Source: Asparagopsis taxiformis (lineage: Eukaryota; Rhodophyta; Florideophyceae; Bonnemaisoniales; Bonnemaisoniaceae). From it: a stretch of 64,000 bases of DNA. Both the position numbers and the translations under genes were made by a program. The notes under the pieces are model-generated. The model ran no database searches. It was given only the letters and a program-made list of their open reading frames with translations, and was not told the origin of the DNA. Location: contig JALQPE010000228.1 of the NCBI GenBank assembly GCA_030407315.1, positions 18,003 to 82,002 on the forward strand, in the 5' to 3' direction. Shown here piece after piece: positions 14,283 to 64,000 of this stretch (positions are counted from its first letter, which is position 1; the number at the start of each line of letters is the position of its first letter).

Positions 14283-15713
14283 ATGGCGCAGCCACAACCC
14301 CGGCACGGGCTTGTCGAAACGTACAGCGAAGATGGGCCGATGCATCCATCTGACAAGTACGGAAACGGAACCATTCTATGGGTTGATCCCGCTCGCGTTG
14401 TTTCAATTCCTGCTATCGCAGGGGCTAGCACCCCAGCCTCCGATGTCACATCCGTAGTGCATCTGGATTTCGAACGTCTCTATCTGTACGGTAGCATTGC
14501 GGACAATGGTGACGTAACCTTGGTGGGAGGCATGGACGTGTGCGAGGAGGTGTGGTCGCGCCCCCGACGGAACACATCGAGATATTTACTTCGCATGAGC
14601 TACGAATCTATTACTACCAAACCACATACGCTTGCCTCTATTCTCTTTCATCTCCTGGAGAGGGAAAGGATTATTCCGTTCTACGAAAGTGTAGCAATAG
14701 TCGCTCACATGCGAGACTGTTGGCATGAAGCTGAGAAGAAAGAGGATCATGTGCCCCTTACAGAACGTACGCTCACAGCGTTTCGAAGGGCTGTGAGCAG
14801 TATGTACAAGTTTGACCTGCCAGCGAATGCTTCAATCGTTCTGGATAAATGGTTCTCGTATGCCTACCATCGTCACACCTTTAACATTGTGCAAGCAGTC
14901 CGAAACTTCACCATTTCTGCTGGTGAAGATGGTAGTGTAGATATAGACACACGGGTATGGGATCTATTCCTCACGAGCTGTGGGTTGCTGGATTTATCCG
15001 TATCCTTCTTTATTCCCGTGTTTGTCCATGAGCGTGATGGGCAATCAGCAGAGGATCCACTCAAAAACTCTCAGAGTCCTGGACCACCACTTCCAGTTCA
15101 GAAAGAGTTCTACACCGAGCATAACTTCTCCCAGTCCGCGATTGGTCGAGATGCCTTCTCAAGACAATCACTAGCATGCCAATTCTTCGTTTCACAGACC
15201 CAGGAGCGCGCTTCGCATCAAGATAGCTGGACAACTCCGAGACTTACCACAACTTTCGAGAGGGTTGTATTTCTCATGGCATTGATACAAATGGACCGAG
15301 ACTGGAAGTTGCAGGCAGAATCCCGGCCACGCTCACGTACAAGAACGAGGTCTTCGAATAGACCCACGCCGCTTTTCAAGAAGGATAGTCCGTGGACTGC
15401 CCAGCGTCTTGGATATGGTATTCATGTGATTCTGAAGTCATGGGATGTATTGGCAAAGTCGCTAGGGGCTACCAATACCGAGGAGCTCTTGCAACCGTAC
15501 CTTCTGTACGACCAGAGAGTATTCACGTACCACGTCCTGGACTCGGAAAATAGGGGCTTCGCACCGCTTCGAGAGCTGAAGACTTTGTTGCACGGCAGAG
15601 GAGCTGTTCGAAGAGTGCAGCACTCGGCAAGCATCTCGAGTGCGGCTGTCCATCGTACGCTGCTGCAAGATGCTCAGATGCGCCTCTGCGCACGTCCTTC
15701 TGGGAGCACATAA
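14283..15713 (+). CDS. N-terminal half of a ParB-methyltransferase-family protein (ORF1)
   Basis: A 476-aa intronless frame from the first ATG (MAQPQPRHGLVETY). Alone it resembles no named family. It aligns along its length with the decayed gene at 61312-62570. GTILWVDPARVVSI pairs with GWVFIDPNQVSKFVSI; PFYESVAIVAHMRDCWHE with FVEYLMIAVDLRDEYW; QAVRNFT..DGSVDIDTRVWDLFL with LAVLRPYHRAEDSSAIDLRLWKCF. In that relative the ParB motif DGAHRCMAI is present. Here the matching place reads GGMDVCEEVW, so the ParB box II is lost or highly diverged. The stop TAA overlaps the next ATG (TAATG), and homology to the relative continues across the junction. The two ORFs were therefore probably one protein, now split by frameshift or by coupled translation. 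Confidence 0.6.
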   Translation: MAQPQPRHGLVETYSEDGPMHPSDKYGNGTILWVDPARVVSIPAIAGASTPASDVTSVVHLDFERLYLYGSIADNGDVTLVGGMDVCEEVWSRPRRNTSRYLLRMSYESITTKPHTLASILFHLLERERIIPFYESVAIVAHMRDCWHEAEKKEDHVPLTERTLTAFRRAVSSMYKFDLPANASIVLDKWFSYAYHRHTFNIVQAVRNFTISAGEDGSVDIDTRVWDLFLTSCGLLDLSVSFFIPVFVHERDGQSAEDPLKNSQSPGPPLPVQKEFYTEHNFSQSAIGRDAFSRQSLACQFFVSQTQERASHQDSWTTPRLTTTFERVVFLMALIQMDRDWKLQAESRPRSRTRTRSSNRPTPLFKKDSPWTAQRLGYGIHVILKSWDVLAKSLGATNTEELLQPYLLYDQRVFTYHVLDSENRGFAPLRELKTLLHGRGAVRRVQHSASISSAAVHRTLLQDAQMRLCARPSGST

Positions 15714-17752
15714 TGACGATCTGTCGGCACAAAGAATTGTTCGACCAAACCGTTTCTTCACCGCGAGCAATACCTTTCCTACAGGGCTTCCAGGCGTCGA
15801 CTGGTTCCCCGGATGCTGGGAGGTTTACGACTATTCGGGCTCTGGGTATGGTTGAAAGGCAACTCACGGCATTCAGCCTCACAGAAGAGCCACAATCAAC
15901 GCCCGACCCTAATGAGGAGCTGTTCGGAGACACTGAGAGAACAGCTTCTCCAGTACGGGATTCTCCGCCCGGCGGGAACGGAACGAGCCCGAATGCTAAA
16001 CGCAGACGACTAGATGAAAGCCCTTCTGGTGCAGGAAGCTCGAGCAGGAATAGCGGTAACAGCGGTACCGCCGAAGCGGCCAGAGCTGATATAAAATCCA
16101 TGCGTGCAGAAGATGAAGTGTTGATTCCTCCAGAAATGGACAACATGAAAGGATCTGTCCTGCATACTTTCAACTGCAGCTTCAGAGACCTTTTGAAGAA
16201 CTATGACGCTGTTGACAATCCTCGAAAGCTGCAAATCCGGGAAGGTGCTCAGTTGGTACTCACTGACCCGCCGTACACTAGGTGTATGTCCGGCAGAGGA
16301 AACTCTGGTTACGATGTCCTCCGTCAGGAAGAAATCGAAGACACGGTAGCTGAAATTTCCAAGGTGACGCGCAAGGGTGGTCATGTTCTCATATTCACAT
16401 CTGCTGCTCTGTTCTACAATTGGGTATACGAGCTTCGCAAAGTGAAATACTCTACGGGTAGTCCTATGTTCGCGGTTGATTCGCAGCCTATCGTCTGTAC
16501 TCGGAGCCCCACCCATTTTACTTCGCCTCCGTATAGGATTACGACCAGTTTGTTAAATATGGTCGAGCTGGTTGTACATGCTGCGAAGCTGGGTAAGGGT
16601 AAAGAAGGCTGGGGGATGGTGAACTACCGAAATGCAGGATACATCCCTTCTAGGTTCAAGGCTTGGACAAATGTCATCGAAAACATCCCGCGCATCACAG
16701 CATCGGAGACAGTGAAATATTTGGACAAGGACAAGAAAAAGGTTACGTTGCGCCCCGAGCAGAAGACCATAGCTCTCATGCAAGAGCTCATTGGACGTTT
16801 CTCAAACCAGGGAGACTTGGTCGTGGACATGTTTGCTGGCACTTTCTCTACTGCAGTTGCATGCTTTCCTATGCACCACGGTCAGTACAGGAGGTTTGTG
16901 GGGTGTGAGAAGTTCACGGACTGCTTTGAACTATCCCTTCCTAGAGTCAATCTTGCATTTCTGCAGCAGGTCTCCATTGGGAACTTTGCTCAACAGTCCA
17001 CGCCCGCCCTGCAGCAGCTGGCCACTTCTCAACTCGGAACTTCCGATGACGATTCCCACTCGAAGAACCCCTCCAGTTTACCAAGTTCGACACAACTTCC
17101 ACCCCACCTCATCAGCTTTCTGACCGCCATTTGGTGCATCCCAGACCACCACAATGACTTGATAGACCTTCCTATTCACAAATGGCCACAATCACTGCTG
17201 GGCTTGTTGTCCACCATGGATAGTAAAACCCTGCTATCAATTGATGCAATGGCACACAATGTATACGTTGCAACTTCAACTATACCTGCAGCTGGTGATG
17301 GACTCTTCGCAAGAGTAGATATTGATCCAGGAGATATCGTCGGGTACTATTTTGGGGCAGTGGTTTACAAGGATCTCTACCAAGCAAAACTGAAGACGTT
17401 TGGTACGGGTCCGACTTCGTTCTCGATTGAGCGCTTCCAGAAGTACGCAGTTCAAATCAAGGACCCAAATATCACCTGCTTGCTTCCGTCTACGTCTAGC
17501 CGCCCCATCTTCATTGTTCCATTCGAGTATTGCGCTGCTTCGAAAATCAACGACCCAACGTTCGTGGATCCAGCAGAGGGAACCGATCGCCCGTCGCGAA
17601 CTGCTAATGTTAGTTTCTCCTCCCCTGTACAAGAACTCATCAGTGAGAGCTCTGTGTCTAGCTACCAAGTTGTATGTGTTACTGCTAACGAGGCTATCTC
17701 AGCTGGATCCGAGCTGTTTATCGAATACGGTCATGATTACTTCACTGTCTAG
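15713..17752 (+). CDS. DNA amino-methyltransferase (permuted, DPPY) fused to a SET domain (ORF2)
   Basis: 679 aa. Residues 1-60 continue homology to the relative at 61312. A disordered linker carries the NLS-like NAKRRRLDES at 94-103. Residues about 148-410 are a DNA N6-adenine/N4-cytosine methyltransferase in the permuted (beta-type) order: LVLTDPPYTRC (DPPY 185-188), KVTRKGGHVLIFTS, then the SAM-binding motif VDMFAGTFSTA (371-381). Residues about 516-679 are a SET domain: AAGDGLFA, YCAASKINDPTF, TANVSFS and SELFIEYGHDYF, closest in pattern to SETs that use IND...ANV in place of NHxCxPN. The predicted roles are DNA adenine (or cytosine N4) methylation plus lysine methylation in the nucleus. 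I know of no common protein with this fusion. Both domains look intact; substrate is inferred. Confidence 0.75.
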   Translation: MTICRHKELFDQTVSSPRAIPFLQGFQASTGSPDAGRFTTIRALGMVERQLTAFSLTEEPQSTPDPNEELFGDTERTASPVRDSPPGGNGTSPNAKRRRLDESPSGAGSSSRNSGNSGTAEAARADIKSMRAEDEVLIPPEMDNMKGSVLHTFNCSFRDLLKNYDAVDNPRKLQIREGAQLVLTDPPYTRCMSGRGNSGYDVLRQEEIEDTVAEISKVTRKGGHVLIFTSAALFYNWVYELRKVKYSTGSPMFAVDSQPIVCTRSPTHFTSPPYRITTSLLNMVELVVHAAKLGKGKEGWGMVNYRNAGYIPSRFKAWTNVIENIPRITASETVKYLDKDKKKVTLRPEQKTIALMQELIGRFSNQGDLVVDMFAGTFSTAVACFPMHHGQYRRFVGCEKFTDCFELSLPRVNLAFLQQVSIGNFAQQSTPALQQLATSQLGTSDDDSHSKNPSSLPSSTQLPPHLISFLTAIWCIPDHHNDLIDLPIHKWPQSLLGLLSTMDSKTLLSIDAMAHNVYVATSTIPAAGDGLFARVDIDPGDIVGYYFGAVVYKDLYQAKLKTFGTGPTSFSIERFQKYAVQIKDPNITCLLPSTSSRPIFIVPFEYCAASKINDPTFVDPAEGTDRPSRTANVSFSSPVQELISESSVSSYQVVCVTANEAISAGSELFIEYGHDYFTV

Positions 17753-18871: not shown

Positions 18872-20545
18872 ATGAGAGATGATTTATCTTTGACTAGGTT
18901 TGCAAAGTTCGAAGAACGGTTCGCATCCCTCGAACAGTACATGCGCGATTCCCTTTCGTCTATTCAATTGGAGCTGGCGTGTATTCGATACATGGCCTCC
19001 GCTGCTGCCGGAACAAACACTGTCCCTTCAGTTGTTCTGGATGAGAGATCAAGAAAAGCAGGTCAAATTGCCACGCTGGTGTCTTCTCTGTTCAACAACA
19101 GGCAGGTGACATCTCGATTCGTCGCTTTCAGAACTGTTGCAGAGCTTGTTAAAACCTTTGTTGACGCCAATTTGCTCAACAATTGTAATTCGAGGTCTGC
19201 AACATCACCACAGGTGGATTCCTGCACAACGTTGCTTCTTGCTGCCCTGTCGTTTTCGCAGACTTCAAGTTCAAATTCTGAGGTAAGGCAATCCAAGAGA
19301 TCTCTTATCGGAACGGCAGTAGGGAAACGACATGTGTTCTTAAAACGCTCTATTATCGGAACTGCGTTTATTTCAATGGCAAATGACAGAATTGTGCGAT
19401 GGAAGGACTCGACGAGCAGGAATGCTGGGGTCCTCGATCCTGGGGAGGAGGAGGACTTGAACAGCAATACTCTATCTCGAGACTATGCACTACGCAATGC
19501 TACAGTAGTGCCCATCGAAAAGCCGTCTTGGCTGCACATTTCCCAACGAGCTCTTTTCCATGCCATGGATATTTCGATGCCCACGGAGGCAGAACGAAAC
19601 GTGGAACAGTCTACGCATTTGCAGGTTACTCTTTCAAAGCGTCGCCGACTGTCTGGTTCGAAAGAAGCACGCCGTACTGGTACATCCTCTTCATCTTCTT
19701 CCGCTGTATCCAACCTTTCTCCGTCTGACTTACAGTCTATTCCGATTATTACCTCTGCACTACGGCAGCTTACACAGTTCTTCAACACTTCCCGGAAACA
19801 GATGAAAATGGAATTGGTCAAACAAGCATTCTTCCTCATCCACCGAGATATGAAGGCAACTGTGGATGTTTCTTCTGCCCATGCTGTTTCCACAACAGAA
19901 ATGTGTCCACCTGACTCTATTCCGACAACTTCGAGAGCTTACGGAACAGGAGAAGAAGCTCTCGAAGTGTATTCAAAAAATGATTCCATCTTCTCAAATT
20001 TCATTCTGAGCCGTCCTGAGCTTCACATTCAGGTTACTTACATAGTTCAGGTGAGCGGTGATATCGATGGTGAAAACATTGCGAGTACGCGAGTGGAGAA
20101 GTTGGCTGTCTGTTCATTCTCCTTTCTTACTCTAGCTATGATATTGTTATGCAGTTTTTGCCAATGTACACAACTGGAGATGCTCTGTCATGAACCTCAT
20201 GCTATTCAAGCATGTTATAAGATTGCAATATGCCTCCAAGGTTTATTTAACGAAGCCCTGAAACAACAGCCTACATCTCATTTTGGGAAGGATGGATTCC
20301 CCTTGCGCGTTACATGGGGACATCTTGAGCTCCGGGACTACCTCATGGGAGGTGACTGCCTCACGGGGATCATTAGAAAGAAGAGAAACCTAACAGCACA
20401 AGAATACGAGTCTGTCCGTTTCGTTTCAGGCTTCAGACATACTGAGCGCTCAGAAGATAACCCAGCAAACAGACCAGTTTCCAATCATGATTGTGTACCT
20501 CTCGAGGAGGATGATGAACTTGGTATTTCTTTAATTGGCATGTAG
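18872..20545 (+). CDS. Cassette protein A1 (coiled coil, NLS; new family)
   Basis: 557-aa intronless ORF from the first ATG. The N-terminus is a predicted coiled coil (KFEERFASLEQYMRDSLSSI). A central disordered Ser-rich stretch has an NLS-like SKRRRLSGSKEARR. The C-terminal half has two blocks shared with the 508-aa protein at 57635. One is ITSALRQLTQFFNTSRKQMK (relative: TKSALTAVTGFMNKSRDHVR). The other is RPELHIQVTYIVQVSGD...CFCQCTQLE-type sequence (relative: RKEMLFKVEYEVQIIGEPD). It resembles no family I know. It converges on B1 with 126 bp between stop codons, the same arrangement as A2/B2. A nuclear partner of the methyltransferase is an inference from linkage. Confidence 0.65.
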   Translation: MRDDLSLTRFAKFEERFASLEQYMRDSLSSIQLELACIRYMASAAAGTNTVPSVVLDERSRKAGQIATLVSSLFNNRQVTSRFVAFRTVAELVKTFVDANLLNNCNSRSATSPQVDSCTTLLLAALSFSQTSSSNSEVRQSKRSLIGTAVGKRHVFLKRSIIGTAFISMANDRIVRWKDSTSRNAGVLDPGEEEDLNSNTLSRDYALRNATVVPIEKPSWLHISQRALFHAMDISMPTEAERNVEQSTHLQVTLSKRRRLSGSKEARRTGTSSSSSSAVSNLSPSDLQSIPIITSALRQLTQFFNTSRKQMKMELVKQAFFLIHRDMKATVDVSSAHAVSTTEMCPPDSIPTTSRAYGTGEEALEVYSKNDSIFSNFILSRPELHIQVTYIVQVSGDIDGENIASTRVEKLAVCSFSFLTLAMILLCSFCQCTQLEMLCHEPHAIQACYKIAICLQGLFNEALKQQPTSHFGKDGFPLRVTWGHLELRDYLMGGDCLTGIIRKKRNLTAQEYESVRFVSGFRHTERSEDNPANRPVSNHDCVPLEEDDELGISLIGM

Positions 20546-20671: not shown

Positions 20672-22366
20672 TCATTTTATGTACTCCTCTGCCCTTTTCT
20701 CTGACACACTATACCCCACCACATCATTGACCACATCTTCCGATATTAACTTGCCTATTCTACATGGTTCTTCCACACCACGGAATATGACATACGGCAT
20801 ATGCACTCTCAATGTTCCCCACAACATGTCACCAGCCCTTCCTCTTTTCCTTTGCGTCGTAGGTTCCCATTCAATGCGGAAACATTTCTTTCTTTCGCTT
20901 CTCCACCCTTCTAGACTCCCGTCACCATCGAACCCCCCGTGCACGCCACATATCGAGGGACATTCCTGCAGCTCCATTCCGTTCACATATTCACCTTGGA
21001 CTACAGCACTACCGTTGCGAGCCAGACACCATACGTTCGATTTAGATCCGGCAATGCAGAACGAGCTACTGCCAATTGCAACAGATGTCGACTGTGCTTC
21101 CATCGTTTCCGAGCACAATATCGTACCAAACAACCGCAGAGCACATGGCCTCGCTGTTCCGTTCATGTCACCACACTCTTCATTCTCCTCCCCTTCCGAG
21201 TTGCTTATGTTACGCCTATAAACCAGAGACTCAGTTCGCCATCTGTGCCCCAATCCTAGCAGATCCGATAGTGTGGAAAAACTGGAACACGTAATGTTCA
21301 CAGCTTCTCCGCCATTTCCAGCCACTGCCGCGTGAAGCCCTGGGTACACTTTGTAATACCCCCCTCGATAGGTTTCTGCTGTTCCCTTTAGCATTTCCCG
21401 GAATAGCTCAGTGCTCAATGAGATTGGAATCTGGACAGGTCCGCTAATAGCCGTTCCACTCGTGCATGCACCGTCAATCTCACCATGTGGGTAGCCACCC
21501 CCTGGGGTTGACAAAGTGCTTCGATTAACCTGTTCCACAACTTTCTCTACCGCACGCTGCAAGAGCATTAACAAAATCTTTCCAGCCGATACTGTTGATG
21601 CACAATTTAGAACCCTTTCGTTCCAACCAAGCCGAATCTCGCTAGCATTTCCAGAAAGCATTATATTTTCTAGTGTTCTCAGCCTTGTCTCCATACCACT
21701 GTATGTTTTGACGTCAAGTGCTGATTCCACTTTTGGCTTCTTCCTCTGCGGTGATATCGCTTCAGATTCTCCATCTGATTGGTCATGACATTCTACTCTC
21801 TCCGCTTCGTAATCCACAGCCTCTCCATTGCTCGTTCGCCACGGTGTCGGGGGCTGGCCCCCCGACATCAACTTATTTCCGAGCAGAAACTTTACGTTTT
21901 CGTAGGCGACACAAGGATAATTCATTTCAGGAATAGCATCGTATAACAATCTGCCTTCTGCCACTGCCATTTCATTATGACTCGGCTTCACAGCGTTCGA
22001 ATGCCGCCACGTAGTGACTTCCAAGACTGAAATCTCCTTTTCCTCCCTCGTCAACCTCACGATTGCATCATCCACATCCTTTCCATTCTGCTCCACCACA
22101 CCAGGCGTGTACATTCCATCTCCTCTGTCTACGTCGATGCGGTCTCCCACTGACGGCTTACCACTGCAGACAGGATACTGCTCAGGAAGTTTCATTTCCA
22201 CAACCGTAGCCTTCCACCATATTGCGTCATCGCCAACTTGGAACCATACGTCTATTTCCGTTCCGACACATGGGAGTGCATCTACGGCAGCTGCCCGCTC
22301 ACGCTCACGACCAGCTTTCGCTTTTTCGCTCTGTCGCCTAATTCGCAATGATTCACGCCTCGTCAT
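20672..22366 (-). CDS. Cassette protein B1 (Tudor/agenet-like N-terminus; new family)
   Basis: 564-aa ORF starting MTRRESLRIRR with a basic N-terminus. Residues about 33-120 match the N-terminal domain of B2 and of the Sel1 protein: VGTEIDVWFQVGDDAIWWKA followed by TVVEM, with the diagnostic W-W-x-A-x-V. A basic NLS (QRKKPKVESA) and a short coiled coil (GMETRLRTLENIML) follow. The C-terminal domain ends GTLRVHMPYVIFRGVEEPCR, matching GTLHLRLPCCIFSGTTICQE of B2. The fold assignment is by pattern only. A chromatin-reader role is inferred. Confidence 0.65.
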   Translation of the reverse strand: MTRRESLRIRRQSEKAKAGRERERAAAVDALPCVGTEIDVWFQVGDDAIWWKATVVEMKLPEQYPVCSGKPSVGDRIDVDRGDGMYTPGVVEQNGKDVDDAIVRLTREEKEISVLEVTTWRHSNAVKPSHNEMAVAEGRLLYDAIPEMNYPCVAYENVKFLLGNKLMSGGQPPTPWRTSNGEAVDYEAERVECHDQSDGESEAISPQRKKPKVESALDVKTYSGMETRLRTLENIMLSGNASEIRLGWNERVLNCASTVSAGKILLMLLQRAVEKVVEQVNRSTLSTPGGGYPHGEIDGACTSGTAISGPVQIPISLSTELFREMLKGTAETYRGGYYKVYPGLHAAVAGNGGEAVNITCSSFSTLSDLLGLGHRWRTESLVYRRNISNSEGEENEECGDMNGTARPCALRLFGTILCSETMEAQSTSVAIGSSSFCIAGSKSNVWCLARNGSAVVQGEYVNGMELQECPSICGVHGGFDGDGSLEGWRSERKKCFRIEWEPTTQRKRGRAGDMLWGTLRVHMPYVIFRGVEEPCRIGKLISEDVVNDVVGYSVSEKRAEEYIK

Positions 22367-31128: not shown

Positions 31129-31692
31129 ATGGAACAGACCACTCCGTTGATACGCGAAATTTCAGATATTTCCGACTCCGACGATAATGCAGATGAAGCC
31201 ATGTTGATAATAATGCTTTGGTTCCTGCTTTGCGAACACGGAGTTCATGATTTGAAGCACGCTACTACTACGGATCCGCCAAAAAACCAACATCACAGAT
31301 GTATTCCTGACCTTGAAACTCCAACTAATTTCTTGGGATCCGCAGACTTTAGTCGGGTGTTTAGAATGAGCAGGAAATCATTCTACTGCCTTGTTGATCT
31401 TCTTGAAAACAGTAAACCCAGATCGAAGAGAAATCACAGAAACAAGAGGCAAGTCAGTACCGAAGTGCGACTAGCTATAACATTGCGGATGCTCGCAGGT
31501 GGGAGCTATCTGGATCAGAGGATTAGTTTCAGGTTATCAGTCAGTTGTATTTACAAGGTATTTCATGAGGCTTGTGCGGAGCTCATGGAGGTTTTGAAGC
31601 TCCCCGGATTGCCTTCAGATTCTATACATCTTGATGAAATTGCCTTCGACTTCAAAATGTCTCGCAGAAATCCTAGCCCACTTAACCACTGA
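31129..31692 (+). pseudogene. PIF/Harbinger (HARBI1-like) transposase, N-terminal part only
   Basis: 187-aa frame. FSRVFRMSRKSFYCLVDLLE, then STEVRLAITLRMLAGGSYLD and LSVSCIYKVFHEACAELMEV match the N-terminal helical region of HARBI1/PIF nucleases (DDE_Tnp_4). The frame ends at NPSPLNH-stop, just where family members continue into the first catalytic Asp (GxxDG). No DDE residues are present here or nearby, so it cannot be an active transposase. The next 140 bp show no continuation before the opposite-strand gene ends at 31834. Confidence 0.7.
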
Positions 31693-31833
31693 TTTCGCTA
31701 TGAACAGAACGTACTTTCCAAACCAGAATCCAACTTTCTGAAGTTGATTGAACATGAGAGATGTTTTTTCATATTGATTGAATAGGATAACAAAGTTGAT
31801 TGAACTACTCGTGTCGTCGAAGACGAGGCGTTT

Positions 31834-46459: not shown

Positions 46460-46875
46460 CTTACAGCTGAGGCAGTTTACCGCGGGGGCTGACAGCAAAG
46501 TCATCGTTACGATGACTTTGCTGTAAGAAAAGAAAACATTACAGCCGGCACGATTTTTTACCCGGTAAAAATTCTTCGCCTACTGTAATGTTTCCTTTTC
46601 TTACAGCAAAGTCATCGTTACGATGACTTTGCTGTAAGAAAACGTTTCATTACAGTAGCCACGATTTTTTACCCGGTAAAAAAATTCTTGGTGATTTTTT
46701 CACCCGGTAAAATCCTTCGCCCACTGTAATGTTTTCTTTTCTTACAGCAAAGTCATCGTAACGATGACTTTGCTGTAAGCATCCCTGGTAAACTGCCTCA
46801 GCTGTAAGCGTCTGGTACCTTGGTCCCTCTCTCACTTTGGGAAGGGTGAGATAGGAATTTTGAAGTCGGGAACAT
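46460..46875. repeat. Foldback cluster C, copy 2
   Basis: Three palindromes near 46493, 46600 and 46741. The extra GATTTTTT(C)ACCCGGTAAAA unit sits in the second spacer, not the first as in copy 1. Confidence 0.65.
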
Positions 46876-48484: not shown

Positions 48485-48895
48485 TTACAGCAAAGTCATC
48501 GTTAAGATGACTTTGCTGTAATGTTTTGTTTTCTTACAGCAAAGTCATCGTAACGATGACTTTGCTGTAATGTTTTGTTTACTTACAGCAAAGTCATCGT
48601 AACGATGACTTTGCTGTAATGTTTTGTTTTCTTACAGCAAAGTCATCGTAACGATGACTTTTCTGTAAGCAACCTGGGTAAACTGCCTTTGCTGTAAGAA
48701 AACTGAATAGCAGTTCCGACAGCTTGTCCTGAAGAGGCAAATCCGCCTTAACGATGACTTTGCTGTAAGAAAACAGAGAACTCTGTACAGTTTTGACAGC
48801 TTGTCCTGAAGAAAAAATCCGCCTTAACGATGACTTTGCTGTAAGAAAACAGAGTAATTACAGTTCTGACAGCTTGTCCTGAAAACCCGTCCTCC
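48485..48895. repeat. Foldback cluster D, copy 2
   Basis: Four palindromes at 48485, 48533, 48582 and 48631 with a period of about 48 bp, then the same half-site units as copy 1. Expanded by two units. Confidence 0.7.
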
Positions 48896-54809: not shown

Positions 54810-55813
54810 ATGAAAGGACAGGTGTCCTCTATCAGGAAGAGAAATCTGAACAGGGCAAAAATCATAGCGAAAAAGTTCGAAGATGGAGAATTGCACAAGG
54901 TACAATGCTGTTCCCGGCGCTGCTTCGAAATTGCTGCCAGCGAAGATCTAGTAAGGGACTCATTTCGAGTCGTTGAGTATGACCGTACGAGACGACAGCG
55001 TACTTAGTATCGTTATATGAGCCGGTGTCGGAAATGTACGCATATCGCGGGAGTGCCGTCTGCTATCAATTCTTAACGCAGGTATTCGGCTTCTCCCGCG
55101 AGATGCAGTGGTCAAACAAAAAACCACTGAAAAAAGCTGCGCAACTGGCGATCGAGAAAAAAAAGGGGGGAGAGTGTGAACGTTGTGAGCGCTGTATGCG
55201 ACTCCGCTCTCCATCTCCGCACCATCGAGTACGCTTGCCGGCAGACAAAGCGCATCAATCCGCGCCGAAAAATTCGCACATTGACACGTTCAGTGCACAG
55301 AAATCTGATATGGACAAACATCTAGCGACGCAAACACAGCCGCAATCTCCTACGGACAAAAATGAAGTATCGCGTGCTGAGCAGCAGTTTCAACCCTCCA
55401 AAGCTACTGAAAAGCCCATCGTGCAACAGTCCGAAAATTCGGAGACGTTTTCGATTCACGAAGAAACGGCGCCGCCGAGTCTTCTGAGTGCTACACAATC
55501 GGGAAAGAAGTTGTTTCTGGTGGTCAAAGGGGATCAGTGTACGGATGAGGAGCCGTTCTGGGTGGCGAGAACACATAGAATTACGCGCAAGGGAAACCGT
55601 ATCGCAAAATTGATGGTTCATTGGTACACCAAAACGGACGCTGACTCCTACCGGAGTAGGTACAAACCGTGCTTTGTGCTCGACACTCCTACACCCTGGA
55701 TTGACACAATTGCGCTTACTTCGGTGATTACAACGTTTGACTCGCTAGTGGACGGAAAGTTAGATGGTGCAACCTGTGATCGAGTACGAGAGCAGTTGCC
55801 ATCGTTTAAATAA
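54810..55813 (+). pseudogene. Shrunken DUF7869-type transposase gene: Cys-rich start and reader-like end only
   Basis: Two frames. 54810-55007 includes VQCCSRRCFEIAASEDL, matching IPCCNKGCFRKTDHVFL of the intact gene. 55025-55813 starts within RGSAVCYQFLTQVFGFSREM (intact: SGKPVCCEFLEYSFKFSRHL), goes through a short disordered stretch, and ends with EEPFWVART...MVHWYTKTDADSYRSRYKP, matching the C-terminal reader-like domain MPFWLGQIM..VRWYE..GKYRP. All three acidic catalytic motifs are deleted. It may be dead, or it may encode a 262-aa DNA/chromatin-binding protein without catalysis. It sits between elements 2 and 3. Confidence 0.65.
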
Positions 55814-56729: not shown

Positions 56730-57235
56730 CACTACGGTGTTGAGAATGAAAACAGACAGTAAATTTACTGTCTGAGACAGTAAAAATTACTGTCTGGCCA
56801 AGACAGTGCGCGGAGACAGTAAAATTTACTGTCTGGAAATTTCAGAATACTGCTGCAGCAGTAAACTGGCACGAAATCTGGACAGTACCAAAAACAGTAA
56901 AATTTACTGTCCAGAACAGTAAATTTTACTGTCCGGAAGTGTTGCCGCCAGACAGTATGTGCAGACAGTACATTTTACTGTCTGAGACAATACATTGTAC
57001 TGTATTACTGCACTGTCTGGGGAAATCTGTAGACAGTAGTGTAGATAGCAAATTGTATTGTCTGCGGGTAGTACCGTGCATTGTTTGACAACACTGTCTG
57101 GTGGAGTGGACTTAGAGGAAATATGGAGCATAGTGTTGGTGTGAAGGTAAATATTGGAATGGTGTGTGGTATACGACTATATTAATTGTGATGGTGCTTT
57201 ACAGATAGTTGGGTGCGGGGAAGCTAGATGCTGAA
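56730..57235. repeat. Left terminus and subterminal repeats of element 3
   Basis: CAGACAGTAAA-type motifs in both orientations to about 57110, then inverted homology to 54290-54400 (for example GGTGTGTGGTATACGACTAT against its complement at 54325). Confidence 0.75.
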
Positions 57236-57634
57236 TAGGACGTTGTAGAAAGGAAGATTGGGAGAACAGAACATATCTGGTTTGTCTCACCGTAAGGAGA
57301 GAATGTACAGAGTAGCTATAATATGTTGAGTTTAGCATTTCAAATTATACCTATCTATCTTTGCATTGAAAGTGTCTAGTAGGAGACGTCAGTCTGGTAG
57401 CGAGGTGTGGTATGCACAGGACGTGGGTGGTGGCAAAGGAAAGAATACGCACCATCCACCACTAAATTATGAAAATAACCGTTACGGAGCACTGGGAAGC
57501 ATTATTATTATGTAGAGTAGACCAGGATGGATGCATCCACTGAAATGATATTTGCTACAACACTGCTGTACTAAGCGTGACATCCTTCCTTCAAAGCAAT
57601 TCTCCTTTTAGCAAACTCCAATTGCAAGGTCAAG
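57236..57634. other. Upstream region of A2
   Basis: Non-coding; presumably holds the A2 promoter. No clear element was recognised. Confidence 0.35.
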
Positions 57635-59161
57635 ATGAATCCCGAAACCTCCGTAAGCATCGCCGCATTTTCCGAAATAACGCGTGAGGGCTTTTCGAAC
57701 ATCACTGCAGAGTTGAAAGCCCTGAGTGATAAAATGGATGCCGTCGAGAAGAGCACCATTCAATTACGCGAGACTCTCGGAAATGTCGCCAAGACTGTCT
57801 CCATGCTAAACACCGATATGCAGGAGGTCAAGAGCATCGTCGATGGGCTTCTGAGCCAGGGACAAGGACATCCGAAGAAGATCGCCTCCGAGAAGGACAG
57901 GGAACGTCTCCGCATTGCGCAGGATGCGGAGAAATCGTTCACGTTCGAAATGGTGTGTGCTGTGCTGTGTGCTGTTGTTCCAACGTACACGAAGGCAATG
58001 GTGGATAAGAGGGATAGGCATTTCAACGGATGCCAGCTAATCAATACGCTGATGTTCGCCAGGCAGAGCAATGAGCGAAAGGATGTGTTCAATAGGACGC
58101 TTGCCGGCCGGAACCACATTGAATTGCGCTGCCAAGTTGTGACCTCTTTAATCAAGAATACGTGTCAAAACAATTCTTTCAGAGAGGGAGGAGACCGTTC
58201 CAGCTCCAATGGAACGTCGGAAGGTATCGAACGGTGGAGGGCGCGGGGGTATGTGACTACCGGGACCATTGAGGAGACAATTCGCGGAACGGACTCTGCT
58301 CGCATGGATGGAATGCATGGGACGTCCGAGGGAAGTGATGGGGCCGCTCGAAAGCAGAAGCGAAGAAAGGTTGGAGACAATGGGCCGTTGCACAGAAAGG
58401 AGGTAGGCATCACTGTGACGAAATCGGCACTCACAGCAGTGACCGGGTTTATGAACAAGTCCAGAGATCATGTGCGAAACCGGTTCATCCGAGATCTTGG
58501 ATTCGTTCTATACAGTGGGTTTCAAGGTTCAGTCCGAATGGAGCATCATTTGCACGACGGTGGGCTGGACATTGAGTCAGTTCCAAGTCTGTACTCGGCG
58601 CAGAGGAAAATGAATGCAGCGGAGCGTGCAGCAATGGATGACAAGAATATGAAGATTCTTCGCGACTTCATTGCAGTGCGAAAAGAAATGCTATTCAAAG
58701 TCGAGTACGAAGTTCAAATAATTGGAGAACCGGACAAGAGGTTTTTGACTAGGAGGATCAATTTAGTAGAGGTTGCACTGAACTTTGCAGTCGCCTACAC
58801 GCAATGTTCTGATAAGAACATGTTCCTGCGACGTTCAGAATACTCCTTGCAATTCATCTACATACTTGCATACGGGTTCCGAACGATTTTGAAATTTCAA
58901 AGTGGAACAGAGGTGGAAGGAGCGCAAATCCGGGAAATCAATGAAGCAGTGAAACTGCTTCTTCCCGGGGAGCGGGTGAGTAGTCGGTTCATGAATGAGG
59001 AGGTTTTGACTATATCGCGTGATAGATATGAAGAACTGAACGTAGACGATGGGGGGGAATCAGTGCTGGAGGAGAGCTTCAGGTCTATGGAAGAGGACGG
59101 AGGAGATGCAGAATATGTGAAGGTATTCGTCGATGATGAAATCGAGAATGAAGGGGAGTAG
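57635..59161 (+). CDS. Cassette protein A2 (coiled coil, NLS)
   Basis: 508-aa intronless ORF starting MNPETSVSIAAFSEITREGF. The N-terminal coiled coil spans about residues 20-75 (ALSDKMDAVEKSTIQLRETL...VSMLNTDMQEVKSIV). A basic patch (RKQKRRKVGDNG) lies near residue 245. The C-terminal half shares blocks with A1 (ALTAVTGFMNKSRDHVRNRF; MLFKVEYEVQIIGEP). The tail is acidic. AATAAA occurs about 45 bp after the stop, a plausible poly(A) signal. Convergent with B2, 275 bp between stops. The ORF is undamaged although the neighbouring methyltransferase is broken. Confidence 0.65.
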   Translation: MNPETSVSIAAFSEITREGFSNITAELKALSDKMDAVEKSTIQLRETLGNVAKTVSMLNTDMQEVKSIVDGLLSQGQGHPKKIASEKDRERLRIAQDAEKSFTFEMVCAVLCAVVPTYTKAMVDKRDRHFNGCQLINTLMFARQSNERKDVFNRTLAGRNHIELRCQVVTSLIKNTCQNNSFREGGDRSSSNGTSEGIERWRARGYVTTGTIEETIRGTDSARMDGMHGTSEGSDGAARKQKRRKVGDNGPLHRKEVGITVTKSALTAVTGFMNKSRDHVRNRFIRDLGFVLYSGFQGSVRMEHHLHDGGLDIESVPSLYSAQRKMNAAERAAMDDKNMKILRDFIAVRKEMLFKVEYEVQIIGEPDKRFLTRRINLVEVALNFAVAYTQCSDKNMFLRRSEYSLQFIYILAYGFRTILKFQSGTEVEGAQIREINEAVKLLLPGERVSSRFMNEEVLTISRDRYEELNVDDGGESVLEESFRSMEEDGGDAEYVKVFVDDEIENEGE

Positions 59162-59436
59162 TATCGGATGAAACCAGTTTCGGTGTAGTAGACGAAGAAT
59201 GAAGAAATAAAATTTCTGTTGAGGTGAATTTTGTAATAGATGGAAGTAGATAGGTGCGAGACATCAGGAAACCAGTCAGACGATAGTGTCAAGTCGAAGG
59301 AAAAGCGCAGAGACAGGTAGTGGAATAGTCGAAGTAGGAAGGGGCGAGGGTATCCGTCTTTACTAGAAATTGATGGCCACAGGAGCTCTACAATGGAATA
59401 CCCAGGAACAGGATAACTACGGATAGGTGTGCTTTA

Positions 59437-60798
59437 TCATTTTTGCTCCGGACTACAGGTGGCAGGTGGAGGAGAGGGTGGGTGGGTAGTGTCTGAATCC
59501 GCATTGAAGCCAAGACGAGAGATAGCCTCATAGCCAATGTCTTCAAGCTCCTGGCATATAGTAGTACCACTGAAAATACAGCAAGGTAAGCGTAGATGTA
59601 GTGTACCAAACGTCTCTGCGGTTGATAGAGGCTGGAAAGTGCTGTAACAAGCTCGGCGCTGAATACGTCTCCACAGTAACGAAAACGTTGCTCCATAAGT
59701 AACAGTAGCCTTATCACGTAGGTGGAAAGAGTCCACGATGCTAGACTGTGATAGTTGGCTAAGACATAGGGGATGTAAAAATGTATTGTTGACATGGTCA
59801 AACTCGTAGGAGTCTCTGCAAAGAACTGTCATACGTTGGTCTGGGCTGGACAGGACGTAAGCAGATGAGCCGACGAGAAATGCGGAAGAAGGAGCATCAT
59901 GAGAGCAGTCAACGTCGACTAGATTTCCTAAAATTCGGACAATCGATGAGCTGCCTCCATCGCGTTCCGCCCTGCTCTTCACCAATATTTTCTGGAACCC
60001 GTGTTGCGAGGTACCTATGGAGTCACATAGTGCCTGAAAGGTGGGGAAAATGATGGAAAGATCCGACTCATTTCCAGAGGGAAAGGTGATGTCCTCAAAG
60101 GACGGCAGGAAGAGAACATCACGATTCTCTTTCGCCTTGCATTGAATGGCAATAGTGCGGAATTGAGCAAGGGAGCAGTCAGCCTGTACTCTGATTTCTT
60201 CTTGCGATGTTTGTCGCATTCCCCTGGAGTGCTCGGATTTTGTCATCCGGAGGGAGAGGGGCTTGTCCGTGTACACACCAAGCTTCTGAAACAGAATGCT
60301 ACATACAGTCAGAGCAGAGGAGGTCATGGAGCTGTTGGAATCGAATGGAGGGGGAAGAGGATGTTTGGCAGCTGACTCCAGCTTTTCCAATCTTGCCAGC
60401 ATTTCTGCTATGGTCTTCTTCATTTGATCCGCAGTGCAATCTTGAAGGATGCCGCGGTGGCGGTGGCGAGTGTGGTCAATGCCGTAGTCCGGGTCTCTCT
60501 CTGCTGGGGATGCAGGTGAGTCCATACTGCGAAGCTCACCACTTCGCCACGGGAGAACCCTTCCGGAATCCTTGTCGACGAGCTCGTTACGATCTGAAAT
60601 CTTGACTTGAGAAAGGGTAGAGTCGAAACCATATTCAGCTTTGTATTCGAGCAATGCATGGAGGAATGGGTCTGTTTCAGTCTTGACCTGAGTAATTTCC
60701 TTGACGATTGCAGACCACCACACAATTTTTCGTTTCCTCCCAAACGGCCGAAGTTCCCATTGAACTTCTATAACGTCGTTTGGAGCGAGAGGAAGCAT
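59437..60798 (-). CDS. Cassette protein B2 (Tudor/agenet-like N-terminus)
   Basis: 453-aa intronless ORF starting MLPLAPNDVIEVQWELRPFG. Residues about 7-90 are the Tudor/agenet-like domain (IVWWSAIVKEI) shared with B1 and the Sel1 proteins. A coiled coil (MKKTIAEMLARLEKLESAAK) follows, then a globular C-terminal region whose end (GTLHLRLPCCIFSGTTICQE) matches B1. It ends in a Pro-rich tail. Function unknown; partnership with A2 is inferred from conserved convergence. Confidence 0.65.
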   Translation of the reverse strand: MLPLAPNDVIEVQWELRPFGRKRKIVWWSAIVKEITQVKTETDPFLHALLEYKAEYGFDSTLSQVKISDRNELVDKDSGRVLPWRSGELRSMDSPASPAERDPDYGIDHTRHRHRGILQDCTADQMKKTIAEMLARLEKLESAAKHPLPPPFDSNSSMTSSALTVCSILFQKLGVYTDKPLSLRMTKSEHSRGMRQTSQEEIRVQADCSLAQFRTIAIQCKAKENRDVLFLPSFEDITFPSGNESDLSIIFPTFQALCDSIGTSQHGFQKILVKSRAERDGGSSSIVRILGNLVDVDCSHDAPSSAFLVGSSAYVLSSPDQRMTVLCRDSYEFDHVNNTFLHPLCLSQLSQSSIVDSFHLRDKATVTYGATFSLLWRRIQRRACYSTFQPLSTAETFGTLHLRLPCCIFSGTTICQELEDIGYEAISRLGFNADSDTTHPPSPPPATCSPEQK

Positions 60799-61311
60799 GT
60801 TGGGATAGCTATGGGATAGAATTGTTGTATTAGTGAAAGCCTAACCGTTACCTTCTGCTAAAGAGTAGTATATACTAGGAGGATTGGAAAGGTCGAGAAG
60901 AGATGTTTAGGTGGTGTAGAAATAGAATGGACAATTGACAAAATTGACACGTCAGTGTGGATGATGTCTGCCATGAACTGATTGCAGCATAAAATTTGAT
61001 GTGAATAATCGTTCTAGAAGTGAATGTCGGATGCATACGATTGGACTACAAAGATACGCTTAGAGATGTTACGCGGCCCAATAAATTGCATGGAAAAATA
61101 TTTTGAGTATTACTTTAGTATTACATTGATTATTGAGCTAACAGTCGATGTAGTTATCTTGTAAAGGTTCGGACAGGGGTGGAAAGGAAACAGCCACCGA
61201 AGTGCTACCACTCGCTGACACTTTGTTTTAAACAACCAACTTCTGCTTTGCGCCACCCTGGTCAAGCAGCAACCAACTATCCCTTTCTTAAAAACTCTAC
61301 CTTTGTTCGCC
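60799..61311. other. Divergent intergenic region between B2 and the ParB-methyltransferase pseudogene
   Basis: About 500 bp, AT-rich, no gene; presumably a shared promoter region. Confidence 0.4.
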
Positions 61312-64000
61312 ATGGAAGGAACGTTCCACAATCACGGTGAAAAGCACGACGGATGGGTGTTCATCGACCCCAATCAAGTCAGCAAATTCGTATCGATTCG
61401 CGATGTTGATGCAAGTCATGTGGAAGCGCTCATGGAGAGCATTCGCAACAGCGGTTATGACACAGCTCATCCCGTGACTGGCAGGTTTCGAGAAGGCGTT
61501 CTGGAGATATTGGATGGAGCGCACCGCTGCATGGCAATTGTACGTGGAATGGAGAAGGGCGTCTTTCCTCCTGGCGTTACGATTCCTATGCGAGAAGAGT
61601 CTATCGTGGCGGACACCAACAGCAGTACTGCTGTTGTGCTGGACCGTGTGAGAGCGACGACATCAACGACATTGCAGGCCTGCAAAGGCGCATGATGTTT
61701 GTTGAGTATCTGATGATCGCCGTTGATCTCAGAGACGAGTACTGGGTCCAAAAGGAAAGGACAAGTACGCTCATATTTCGTCTGTGGATGGGCCGATGTG
61801 TTGAGCTGGATCAAATCCTGCGATCCAAGCGGCCAAATTGCTTCAAGCCGAGTGGTAAACCGCAGTACAGCTCATGCATGTCTATCCTGGCTGTGCTTCG
61901 GCCGTATCACCGAGCAGAAGATTCGAGTGCGATTGATTTGCGTCTGTGGAAATGTTTTGTCATGCATGGGGACTCAATGCAGAGATGGTGATTCTCCGAG
62001 GATGGTTGAGTTTCCGAAACAGGTGGGGGTGACTAGTTCTCGTGCCGTCGAAATGTTTGGCAAGACACCCCGCGGAGAATTGTCCTCTCCACTGAACCGC
62101 GAACTGCTTTCGAGCAGGTACTTTCTAGACGGCGCTACATCCGACATGCAAGATTCTTTGCAGGCTAGCCAGAAGCGGTCAGGAGGCTGATGGTTATGAT
62201 GTGCCAGTGTATCTTGGCTATTCGCAGTAAGGAGATGGGGCAGTGCGCCATCTAGGCGGGCCAGAGCCACATCCGGGGCCATTGGTGGTGGTGGAATGGT
62301 TGGAATTGCAACATCCAGTGCGCAAGCCAACCAGCTTGGATTTGTTGTCGACCGTGTGTTAGCTGCGTGGGATACCGGGGCAAGAGTGTTGGGGGTATGA
62401 GGATGTTTGAATCGATGTGCTGGCCGTTCATGGTATTCGATCCTGCGAGCCTTTGCTTCAGGTCACTCCCGAATCGGTCTGATGGCTGCGCGGTCGAGGA
62501 GCATCGGAAAACCTGACCATTGTCCCGAAAACTGTAGACAGTGAAAACGGGTTCTGTGCCGACCTTCCAGTGGCTGTGGATCCAAGGCTGCGATCATTGA
62601 CAAGCGCCTTCCTGCTGTCGATACGCCAATGTGTCACTGAGGTGAATGTGTTCGCCGAGCGTGGTCAGCTGATGCAGAGACTTCGAGCCTTGCTTTTCGA
62701 CACTCCTGACAAGTTCGGATTGAACTCGTTCATGCGAGCCAAGTTGAACACGTCTCATGCCCTGGATGGTCAGAGGAGGCTGAAGGCTTGGTTATTGCGA
62801 ACCGAGAGCAACGAAAGCTTCCTCTGACCATGGATGAGTTGCACAGTCTTGAGGATACGCCCGAGCCTGGCATCCTTGAAGGTGCACCTGCGCAGATGGA
62901 AATATCCGCAGCAGTGCCAAACAATGGCAGCGAGGATATAGAAGAGGATAGTCTGGAGCCACAGAGGAAGAAGGCTAGGCTGGAGCGCGGTGGTGGAGAG
63001 GACGATAATGCGGCGGTTGCTAGCGAAACAGCAACAAGAGAAGGTGCGGCCGAGGATGACGCTATGGAGGTTGACACTGTATCGCCTACAAAGCACCGCT
63101 CGTTGACGTCGGAAAGGAATCCAAGCCGGAATATGTCACCAAGCTGGAAGCTGTGATGGGGCGTTACATTCACACTGTGAATTGTGACGCTACTGATGTA
63201 GCCAAAGAGGTGGAGGACAAAAATTAGTTTCCTGGAAGATGGCGTGTTGGAGGACAGTGTTCAGCTTGTGCTCACTGATCCTCCATTCAACACGAGGCGG
63301 GAAGGCGGCAGAGAAAACTCGGAGTACGATATTCTGGAGCCGGAAGAGTTTGGCGAGTGTTTGCGTGTGAAATAGTTCGAGTTCTTCGGCCTGGCGGTCA
63401 TGCTCTAATCTATTCCAGCGTGCGCCAACTCGTGGCATGGATGGATGCAATCAGAAATGCCGAGCCTGGCAGAGATGTTTGGACAGTGTTCCAGTCGTGC
63501 TATCTCGCCGACCACACGCTTTACGTCGTCAATCCATCGACGAAAACGTGCACACTGCATATATGCACGATTTCGTTATCCATGCGTATAAGCGGGGGAA
63601 GGGTATGGCTGCATACGATATGGTGGATTACAGGTTGCACAATCCGGACATATCGAGGCCACCCTGGGTTCACCAACGCGATTGACAACGTTCCGAGGTT
63701 GTCGGCTGGTGAAGCTCAATACGATGGGCAGAACAACGACTGCTGCGCCATGAGCAGAAGGCGTTGACCACCTCTTCGTGAGCTTCTGGAACGATTTTCG
63801 AAGCAGAACGATATCGTGATGGATTTCTTCTCGGGAACATACAGCACAGCCATAGCGTGTATGACGTTGAGGGATGGTACGTATCGTCGGTTCATTGGTG
63901 TGAGAAGGAAAAAAGGTGCCACGATGCATCGCAGGAGTGGATACTGCATGCTTTCGTCAGTGAGGTGAAAGCCGGGCGATATGGGGGGATCTTGCAGCGT
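61312..64000 (+). pseudogene. ParB-like/DNA amino-methyltransferase gene, decayed, runs off the window
   Basis: It starts MEGTFHNHGEKHDGWVFIDP. The ParB-like box II is VLEILDGAHRCMAIVRGM. After frameshifts the middle aligns with ORF1 at 14283 (LMIAVDLRDEYW; SSAIDLRLWKCF). At 62788-63156 an open frame matches the start of ORF2 (NREQRKLPLTMDELHSLEDT against VERQLTAFSLTEEPQSTPDP). RYIHTVNCDATDVAKE follows, then VQLVLTDPPFNTRREGGREN (motif DPPF at about 63270), a TAG, VRVLRPGGHALIYSSV in another frame, and VMDFFSGTYSTAIACM near 63820. At least six frameshifts or stops are present, so it is non-functional. Homology continues to the last base (CEKEKRCHDASQEWILHAF). Whether a SET domain follows cannot be seen. 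Confidence 0.75.

What the first reader, a model, noticed from the sequence alone, without database searches (positions are those of the whole stretch)
14283..64000. Three DNA amino-methyltransferase genes with chromatin-type domains linked to transposons: a possible self-marking mobile-element system
In 64 kb there are three permuted DPPY/F methyltransferases (15713-17752, 34607-37639, 61312-64000). They share the unusual SAM motif D-x-[FY]-x-G-T-x-x-T-A. They are coupled to ParB-like motifs (two), a SET domain (one), Tudor-like partners (B1, B2, Sel1) and a transposase-like gene with its own reader-like domain. A decayed 2OG-Fe oxygenase occurs in the same type of element. Amino-methyltransferases plus ParB are known in bacterial mobile DNA. 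In a eukaryote this set suggests elements that write and read an N6-adenine (or N4-cytosine) mark, perhaps for self-recognition or escape from silencing. Content is seen; the mechanism is inference.
Basis: partly seen in the sequence, partly recalled or inferred. Interest (0 to 1): 0.9.

Follow-up and report, generated by a model that had tools for sequence, protein, structure and literature searches.

The report
Transposons carrying DNA-marking enzyme kits
In what is likely a red seaweed genome, more than 200 copies of a bacterial-type DNA methyltransferase gene occur, many of them inside large jumping genes, one family of which also carries a probable mark-removing oxygenase and arrays of a 37-letter palindrome that would serve as its address, so these elements likely mark their own DNA.

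Summary
The core of the finding is real. The window is a nest of DNA transposons in a 141.5-Mb genome, probably a red alga (likely Asparagopsis). Its three beta-class amino-methyltransferase genes belong to three repeated families: #1 MTase+SET, a split copy of a 1203-aa frame; #2 intact, beside a DUF7869 gene; #3 decayed, with an intact 1155-aa MTase-SET sister 70 kb away in the same contig. One family is a 25-kb EnSpm/CACTA-like element (termini CACTACGGTGTTG, 2-bp target duplications) with MTase, a second protein that reads as a 2OG-Fe oxygenase, and a transposase-like gene. Another is a 12.4-kb DUF7869 element with 169-bp inverted repeats. An empty-site comparison proves one insertion in the window. 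New here: the SET fusion, the companion oxygenase, and a 37-bp near-palindrome with 6,713 exact genomic copies (reversed control 0), arrayed inside EnSpm-like elements and absent from the DUF7869 stretches read. No C5-cytosine methyltransferase was found, so a 5mC-eraser role for the oxygenase is unlikely. ParB similarity is weak; Tudor readers were not supported. ParB-MTases in algal transposons are already in print, so this is a new variant. Methylation itself is untested.

The parts
1..13778 (-). D1: EnSpm/CACTA-like element in which no MTase was seen; starts upstream at C228:15960, ends at 13778 with the left-type terminus
   Evidence: Termini CACTACGGTGTTG, 2-bp flank match CA/CA; aligns to D2 in pieces of 87-99.5% identity, the longest 98.9% over 6.2 kb
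3132..7675 (.). 11 copies of the 37-bp near-palindrome TTACAGCAAAGTCATCGT[T/A]ACGATGACTTTGCTGTAA in four clusters in D1
   Evidence: 6,713 exact copies genome-wide, 0 in reversed control
14283..15713 (+). N-terminal half of the split MTase #1 gene
   Evidence: phmmer match to residues 1-620 of the 1155-aa sister, E 3.5e-7 among four sequences; 1203-aa open frame in 99% copies
15713..17752 (+). MTase #1: beta-class amino-methyltransferase domain + SET domain
   Evidence: Pfam PF01555 and PF00856 over cut-off; 66 genomic matches
18872..20545 (+). B1-like gene near MTase #1
   Evidence: BLASTP to B1 57635-59161, E 1.4e-8
20672..22366 (-). B2-like gene near MTase #1 (weak resemblance to B2)
   Evidence: BLASTP E 0.019 to 59437-60798; no Pfam match
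31687..38968 (-). DUF7869/MTase #2 element, terminal piece beginning CACTGATTTCGC; continues after the D2 insertion at 54776
   Evidence: Same sharp end in C94 and C635 with different flanks; empty site in C94 and C687
31834..34347 (-). DUF7869 gene, probable transposase
   Evidence: PF25273 E 2.4e-49; a C609 relative (36% identity) lies in an element with 169-bp TIRs and a 4-bp flank repeat
34607..37639 (-). MTase #2, intact 1010 aa; DG-x-HR motif, MTase domain, unidentified C-terminal domain
   Evidence: PF01555 E 3.4e-12; 47 matches, 45 places, 96-100% identity
38969..54775 (-). D2: 15,807-bp EnSpm/CACTA-like element inserted in the DUF7869/MTase #2 element
   Evidence: Flank duplication AT and uninterrupted empty site in two other copies
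43992..48668 (.). 13 copies of the 37-bp near-palindrome in D2
55025..55813 (+). Second DUF7869-related ORF, in the continuation of the MTase #2 element
   Evidence: BLASTP to the C-terminus of 31834-34347, E 3.8e-10; contiguity with the MTase #2 element in C94 and C687 up to 55252 and 55382
56730..64000 (+). Third element (A type), left end to contig end; one full-length copy elsewhere is 25,264 bp (C74:32666-57929)
   Evidence: Terminus at 56730; 341 exact copies of the left terminus; C74
57635..59161 (+). B1 gene of the A element, function unknown
   Evidence: Whole or in part in 6 of 10 A-type copies read, the other stretches end too soon to tell
59437..60798 (-). B2 gene of the A element, proposed Tudor-like, not confirmed
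   Evidence: ORF present in 9 of 10 A-type copies read; no Pfam match, no credible PDB match
61312..64000 (+). MTase #3, decayed MTase gene with a ParB-like start, cut by the contig end before the SET part
   Evidence: 22 stops; 98.9% DNA identity to L009; MTase + SET in the intact sister, weak ParB match

Best explanation
The window is a nest of DNA transposons, at least two families of which carry a phage/bacterial-type DNA amino-methyltransferase that is predicted to methylate adenine and likely marks the element's own DNA, in the EnSpm-like family probably guided by a ParB-like domain that would bind arrays of a conserved 37-bp palindrome inside the element. Shown: the elements, their ends, insertion events, gene sets, copy numbers, the catalytic motifs and fold of the MTase, the SET domain and the palindrome arrays. 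Inferred: N6-adenine as product (DPPY/F catalytic motif; nearest folds are mostly adenine MTases); the ParB identity of the N-terminal domain and tethering by it; and that the companion protein is a 2OG-Fe oxygenase that removes or tunes the mark. Because no C5-cytosine methyltransferase was found in the genome, a 5mC eraser role is unlikely, and an N-methyl or histone-methyl substrate is the better guess. The SET part would add a histone or protein mark at the same place. The likely pay-off is keeping the element's chromatin accessible to its own transposase and expression, with the eraser as an off-switch or reset.
For: Full-length element C74:32666-57929 (25,264 bp) has both termini, a GC/GC flank duplication and, by position, MTase, 2OG and transposase-gene hits inside. 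Left terminus 341 and right terminus 933 exact copies, 0 in reversed controls. 2-bp flank duplication in 6 of 10 paired elements and an empty site for D2. 42 of 78 A-type MTase hits on contigs up to C663 have a left terminus upstream within 12 kb in the same orientation, 36 of these at about 6,520-6,560 bp. 17 of 45 MTase #2 copies pair with a DUF7869 hit among the 50 of 150 listed rows that I entered, always same strand and at a few fixed distances. C609:16766-29155 is a TIR-bounded DUF7869+MTase element. Purifying selection on the 1155-aa MTase, pN/pS 0.24. Fold CcrM/TTHA0409/M1.HpyAVI. Palindrome: 6,713 exact copies, 9-13 in each of four element stretches read, 42 of 43 with at most 2 mismatches, mean site identity 0.965 against 0.541 for flanks between A and D1, 75 of 100 listed sites within 13 kb of a listed end against at most 23% by chance. 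The PhiCh1 phage MTase has a ParB_N (E 5e-5, below cut-off) + N6_N4 architecture. PF00145: 0 matches here, 10 of 14 control genomes ring.
Against: No methylation data. ParB homology is weak: one named match at E 0.003 and one unnamed at 1.7e-5 in one family, no Pfam match, low-confidence model there; and a bacterial ParB N-terminal domain alone is not known to bind parS (recalled). No evidence links the palindrome to that domain rather than to the transposase or another factor; 25 of 100 listed sites are not within 13 kb of a listed end (19 of these 25 lie within 5.3 kb of a contig start). The 2OG assignment rests on invariant HxD...H...R in 5 rows that are only three distinct sequences; no match in Pfam, PHROGs or NCBIfam that supports it and a useless model (pLDDT 31). 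No palindrome in the DUF7869 stretches read, though they carry MTases. 4 of 10 paired elements lack matching flanks, and of the three pairs that hold an MTase hit only one (C74) has the duplication. Selection was measured on copies picked as intact; MTase #2 gave 1.40 on 12 changes and B2 0.88-0.99.
Confidence: 0.55

Rival explanations
1. The mark times transposition, as Dam methylation does for bacterial Tn10: fully methylated ends are inert and hemimethylated ends after replication are active. Chromatin escape plays no part.
For: MTases travel with transposase-type genes of two unrelated kinds and one family is conserved; the Tn10 precedent is recalled.
Against: The SET domain fused to the MTase and the companion oxygenase-like protein are not needed for a replication clock; the palindromes lie kilobases from the termini.
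Confidence: 0.25
2. The palindromes are binding sites of the transposase or another element protein, or hairpin-forming structural repeats, and the ParB-like domain has no DNA-addressing role; the MTase methylates widely.
For: ParB similarity is weak; palindromes are absent from the DUF7869/MTase stretches read; CACTA elements are known to carry repeated transposase-binding motifs near their ends (recalled).
Against: The sites are internal, clustered around the MTase and oxygenase genes, not subterminal; other short repeats (GACAGT-type, seen by eye) already sit next to the ends.
Confidence: 0.28
3. The MTases are passenger cargo that act on host genes or defend against other DNA (phage-like modification) rather than marking the element.
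For: The closest relatives with a name are phage and bacterial MTases; giant elements elsewhere carry accessory genes (PMC12477816, passages).
Against: The same MTase type recurs in several element families at fixed positions, with purifying selection in one; no endonuclease partner passed a Pfam cut-off in the proteins scanned.
Confidence: 0.12
4. Bacterial contamination or assembly artefact.
For: N6_N4_Mtase is a prokaryotic family, ringing in 11 of 14 control genomes.
Against: 150 scored hits over many contigs in diverged families, DUF7869 neighbours absent from 14 of 14 prokaryote controls, SET fusions and an empty site.
Confidence: 0.02

Closest known systems
ParB-MTase accessory protein of Ectocarpus Sola1-1 (21.5 kb) and the green and red algal transposon proteins cited with it (PMC12477816, passages seen; its references Iyer 2011 and Petroll 2025 not read, the second asked for and not held)
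   Same: ParB-like domain plus N4C/N6A-type MTase of similar length (1104 aa) in a giant DNA transposon; the same self-marking proposal
   Different: Here SET is fused to the MTase, a protein that reads as ParB + 2OG-Fe oxygenase is co-encoded, element types are EnSpm-like and DUF7869, and a candidate palindromic address is found
TET/JBP-bearing transposons of fungi (PMC12730594, abstract and passages seen)
   Same: DNA transposons of several superfamilies, EnSpm included, carry a 2OG-Fe dioxygenase thought to act on DNA marks
   Different: There the dioxygenase is thought to oppose cytosine methylation and no writer is reported in what I read; here writer and probable oxygenase are together and no C5-MTase was found
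Adenine methyltransferase of the haloarchaeal virus PhiCh1
   Same: ParB_N (below cut-off) plus N6_N4_Mtase in one protein; 26% identity over the MTase core
   Different: 419 aa, viral, no SET domain
CcrM / TTHA0409 / M1.HpyAVI beta-class MTases
   Same: Fold and motif order
   Different: Bacterial; no SET or ParB-like part in the matched chains

Membership tests
EnSpm/CACTA (CMC) transposons | CACTA-type terminal inverted ends | tested here: met
   CACTACGGTGTTG at both ends, inverted
EnSpm/CACTA (CMC) transposons | 2-5 bp target-site duplication (range given in PMC12730594) | tested here: met
   2-bp duplication in 6 of 10 paired elements (C212 had two candidate partners, both matching); empty site for D2
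EnSpm/CACTA (CMC) transposons | DDE transposase with C(2)C and H(3-4)H motifs (definition from PMC12730594) | tested here: inconclusive
   C-x2-C seen by eye, H-to-H spacing 7 by eye in the transposase-like protein; no Pfam match
Beta-class DNA amino-methyltransferase | Motif IV (DPPY/F) before motif I, N6_N4_Mtase profile, class I fold | tested here: met
N6-adenine (not N4-cytosine) methyltransferase | Product specificity | not testable with these tools
   DPP[YF] motif only; the Adineta and PvuII N4C enzymes are also among the fold matches
ParB-like domain | Profile match at the N-terminus | tested here: inconclusive
   phrog_1033 (ParB-like) E 0.003 and unnamed phrog_4272 E 1.7e-5 for the 1155-aa protein; no Pfam match; #2 and the 2OG protein by motif only
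SET domain | Pfam SET over cut-off | tested here: met
   26.8, 27.6 and 29.5 bits against 22.4 in three families
2OG-Fe(II) dioxygenase | HxD...H...R in a double-stranded beta helix | tested here: inconclusive
   H922, D924, H994, R1013 invariant in 5 of 5 rows, three distinct sequences; no Pfam match; model pLDDT 31
Tudor-domain readers | Tudor profile match | tested here: not met
   No Tudor match over cut-off in B1, B2 or 20672-22366 (one 12-bit Hva1_TUDOR match, E 0.23, in B1); B2 none in the PDB
Fungal-type TET+ transposons | Dioxygenase belongs to TET/JBP | not tested
   No TET/JBP comparison was made

The most novel reading that the evidence does not exclude
A eukaryotic transposon carries a complete self-addressed epigenetic circuit: a ParB-guided adenine methyltransferase fused to a histone methyltransferase as writer, a ParB-guided 2OG-Fe dioxygenase as eraser, and about ten parS-like palindromes per element as address, working in a host without cytosine methylation; the same MTase lineage serves two unrelated transposase types.
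Probability: 0.32. Interest if true: 0.88.

Novelty: new variant of a known kind. Interest (0 to 1): 0.7.

Why it matters
If true, parasitic DNA in a eukaryote would write, erase and address its own chemical mark, in a host where cytosine methylation seems to be absent. That would suggest how giant transposons reach hundreds of near-identical copies, and would add a source of adenine methylation separate from the host's own MT-A70 enzymes, which bears on the debate over 6mA in eukaryotes. It is directly testable: if, as seems likely, this is the Asparagopsis taxiformis L6 assembly, PacBio data from the same project were deposited. A sequence-specific ParB-like domain with a 37-bp site would also be a recruitment tool.

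Tried and rejected
Fold of the ParB+2OG protein: model useless (pLDDT 31). Relatives of its 2OG part among 5.8 billion proteins: one, 100% identical. MTase #2 relatives: 8 proteins, sources unnamed. Tudor domain in B2: nothing. D1/D2 as a misassembly or one giant repeat: rejected, since each has its own ends and flank duplication and D2 an empty site. The 54277-57227 inverted repeat as TIRs of one 2.9-kb element: rejected; they are the facing ends of D2 and the A element. MTase #2 element's far end: not found. Rows dropped: the tree used 13 of the 18 rows of alignment A1 with 7 phage proteins; left out were near-copies L020, L021, L022, L025 and the incomplete P0008; rows labelled 'alga' there include P0002-P0007, whose organisms are unknown. 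In one search two fragment rows were left out, and 50 of the 150 DUF7869 rows were entered. In one search only the A-type part of the hits was entered, and the C123 row counted as a 2OG-MTase pair lies outside the element's left end, so 7 of 44 rather than 8 of 44 fit the arrangement. DUF7869 in print: 0 papers in the held library.
Full report
What genome this is. The window is C228:18003-82002 of a 141,494,207-base assembly in 3,156 contigs. Contig C469 holds phycobilisome genes; apcA and apcB lie there beside atpB and atpE (gene names by my reading of the ORFs; allophycocyanin alpha confirmed against the PDB). Two equal-scoring copies of one phycobilisome gene lie 177,170 bases apart on it, as a wrapped circular plastid would give. 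This points to a red alga. PMC12115072 (passages seen) reports Asparagopsis taxiformis L6 with 142.47 Mb, 3,308 contigs and a 176,936-bp plastid, so that species is likely but not proven. The same paper reports 70.67% repeats, and a figure legend names DNA-methyltransferase and Sel1 genes on the contig of the bromoform gene cluster.

Observation. Pfam confirms MTase domains at 15713-17752 and 34607-37639, SET in the first, DUF7869 at 31834-34347 and Sel1 at 9736-10737. The third MTase is a decayed copy with 22 stops of a family whose intact 1155-aa member lies about 70 kb away in the same contig. The first is a split copy of a frame that is 1,203 aa long in 99%-identical copies. Across 18 aligned rows DPP and the D, G, T, T, A of the SAM motif are invariant. 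The order DPPY/F then SAM motif is the usual beta-class order, so 'permuted' is correct but ordinary.

Scale. A six-frame search scored 150 of 2,605 PF01555 candidates: all 150 are over the cut-off and 145 have no stop inside the match. DUF7869 likewise gives 150 scored of 502 candidates, and rings in 0 of 14 prokaryote controls. MTase #2 has 47 matches at 45 places and MTase #1 has 66; their places do not recur in the list. Eight intact copies of the 1155-aa family give a pooled pN/pS of 0.24 over 28 pairs; three other MTase pairs give 0.21, 0.26 and 0.47; MTase #2 gives 1.40 on 12 changes, the DUF7869 gene 0.65 on 13, and B2 0.88 and 0.99 on about 90. So constraint is seen for MTases of the first kinds, not shown for #2, and not seen for B2.

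The EnSpm-like elements. Aligning copies gave a sharp end, CACTACGGTGTTGAGAATGAAAA, at 56730 in the window and at C228:13777 and C92:45420. The other end is CACTACGGTGTTGAAAAGGG. They occur 341 and 933 times exactly, 0 in reversed controls. Ten elements were paired; 2-bp flank duplications are present in six (C74, C19, C104, C212, D1, D2; C212 has two candidate partners and both match) and absent in four (C44, C168, C10, C64). Of the three pairs that hold an MTase hit (C74, C44, C168) only C74 has the duplication. In two other copies of the MTase #2 element the sequence around 38968/54776 is uninterrupted, so D2 (38969-54775) is a 15,807-bp insertion with duplication AT. C74:32666-57929 is a full-length element of 25,264 bp: by position it holds an MTase, the ParB+2OG protein and the transposase-like gene between both termini; its interior was not read. 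C390 was read from 61200 and has the same order up to a right terminus ending at 84141; its left end was not fetched. Of 78 A-type MTase hits on contigs up to C663, 42 have a left terminus upstream within 12 kb in the same orientation, 36 of them at about 6,520-6,560 bp. The ParB+2OG protein (44 scored copies, 99-100% identical) has the transposase-like gene (42 scored copies) at 1.16-1.37 kb on the same strand in 15 of 44, both lists capped, and an A-type MTase in the element arrangement in 7 of 44 (one search corrected, see Tried and rejected). Of 10 A-type copies read, 9 have the B2 ORF and 6 show B1 whole or in part. The D elements share outer regions with A at 87-95%; no MTase was seen in them.

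The DUF7869 elements. C609:16766-29155 (12,390 bp) is bounded by 169-bp inverted repeats at 89% and the flank repeat GTAT, and holds DUF7869 and MTase genes. Seven of 12 C609-type MTases have a listed DUF7869 hit at the same distance and in divergent orientation; for MTase #2 it is 17 of 45, always same strand, with 50 of 150 DUF7869 rows entered. The window's MTase #2 element has a shared end CACTGATTTCGC in three copies with different flanks; its other end was not found.

The proteins. The MTase core matches DpnA/M1.HpyAVI, M.BceJIV, MboIIA, CcrM and the Adineta N4C enzyme by profile and CcrM, TTHA0409 and relatives by fold (the model is confident only in the MTase region, mean overall pLDDT 42). 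In a tree of 13 element MTases and 7 phage enzymes, a SET clade (99/97) and a clade with the MTases seen beside DUF7869 (#2, C609, C1591) and their relatives (100/99) together form one side (93/96). The nearest phage hit is the PhiCh1 adenine MTase, itself N6_N4_Mtase with a sub-threshold ParB_N. The N-terminal part of the 1155-aa protein matches phrog_1033, a ParB-like partition protein (E 0.003), and unnamed phrog_4272 (E 1.7e-5), but no Pfam family. SET passes its Pfam cut-off in three families. The 1040-aa companion has a DG-S-HR motif near its N-terminus and, in its C-terminal part, invariant H-x-D, H and R, which reads as a 2OG-Fe dioxygenase; no library confirms it and the model failed.

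The palindrome. TTACAGCAAAGTCATCGT[T/A]ACGATGACTTTGCTGTAA occurs 9 times in the C92 stretch, 10 in C390, 11 in D1 and 13 in D2, in clusters of two to four. 42 of 43 sites have at most two mismatches; between A and D1 the sites average 0.965 identity and their 40-bp flanks 0.541. Genome-wide there are 6,713 exact copies and none of the reversed control. Of the 100 listed, 75 lie within 13 kb of a listed element end, against at most 23% expected; of the other 25, 19 lie within 5.3 kb of a contig start. None occur in the C609 and C635 stretches or between 13779 and 38968 of the window. I propose it as the address of the ParB-like domain; this is inference.

Mechanism. The MTase is predicted to methylate adenine on the element, tethered by the ParB-like domain at the palindromes, with SET adding a protein mark and the oxygenase removing or tuning one. 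In eukaryotes with robust 6mA the mark goes with permissive chromatin (PMC12695648: title, start of abstract in a listing, and passages). No C5-cytosine MTase was found (0 matches; exon-by-exon search, so a heavily split gene could be missed), which speaks against a TET-like 5mC eraser. All functional steps are untested.

Prior art. [quoted passage not shown] Its red-algal source was not held. Fungal transposons of many types carry TET/JBP dioxygenases (PMC12730594, abstract and passages). I saw no description of the SET fusion, the companion oxygenase or the palindrome arrays in the listings of searches or the passages read; these cover open-licence papers only.

Noticed in passing
window 37717-37766: A 50-bp near-perfect palindrome centred on TTGGATCCAA lies about 80 bp upstream of MTase #2's start codon, a possible operator or address for that MTase.
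   Followed up: no
window 6726-7541 and 47574-48389: 172-bp tandem repeats, four units listed, in each D element.
   Followed up: no
window 8163-9005: ORF inside D1 with a sub-threshold LPMO_10 match (21.3 against 23 bits): perhaps a captured host-type gene.
   Followed up: no
window 24071-25768: GC-rich (63% in the 24-26 kb bin) gag-like ORFs by eye, perhaps a retroelement, between element 1 and the DUF7869 element.
   Followed up: no
C228:13809-15263 (L010:5807-7261): A second, shorter protein with the same HxD...H...R block as the ParB+2OG protein, just outside the first A element's left end.
   Followed up: partly
window 34607-37639, last 100 residues: C-terminal domain shared by MTase #2 and several relatives resembles, from memory, a domain of plant CACTA transposon proteins; the C609 and C1591 MTases end in a cysteine-rich, zinc-finger-like stretch instead.
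   Followed up: no
whole genome: No PF00145 cytosine-C5 methyltransferase match in a 141-Mb repeat-rich genome.
   Followed up: partly
window 4369 and 45257: An internal right-type CACTACGG terminus inside both D copies at the same place, perhaps a relic of nesting older than their spread.
   Followed up: partly
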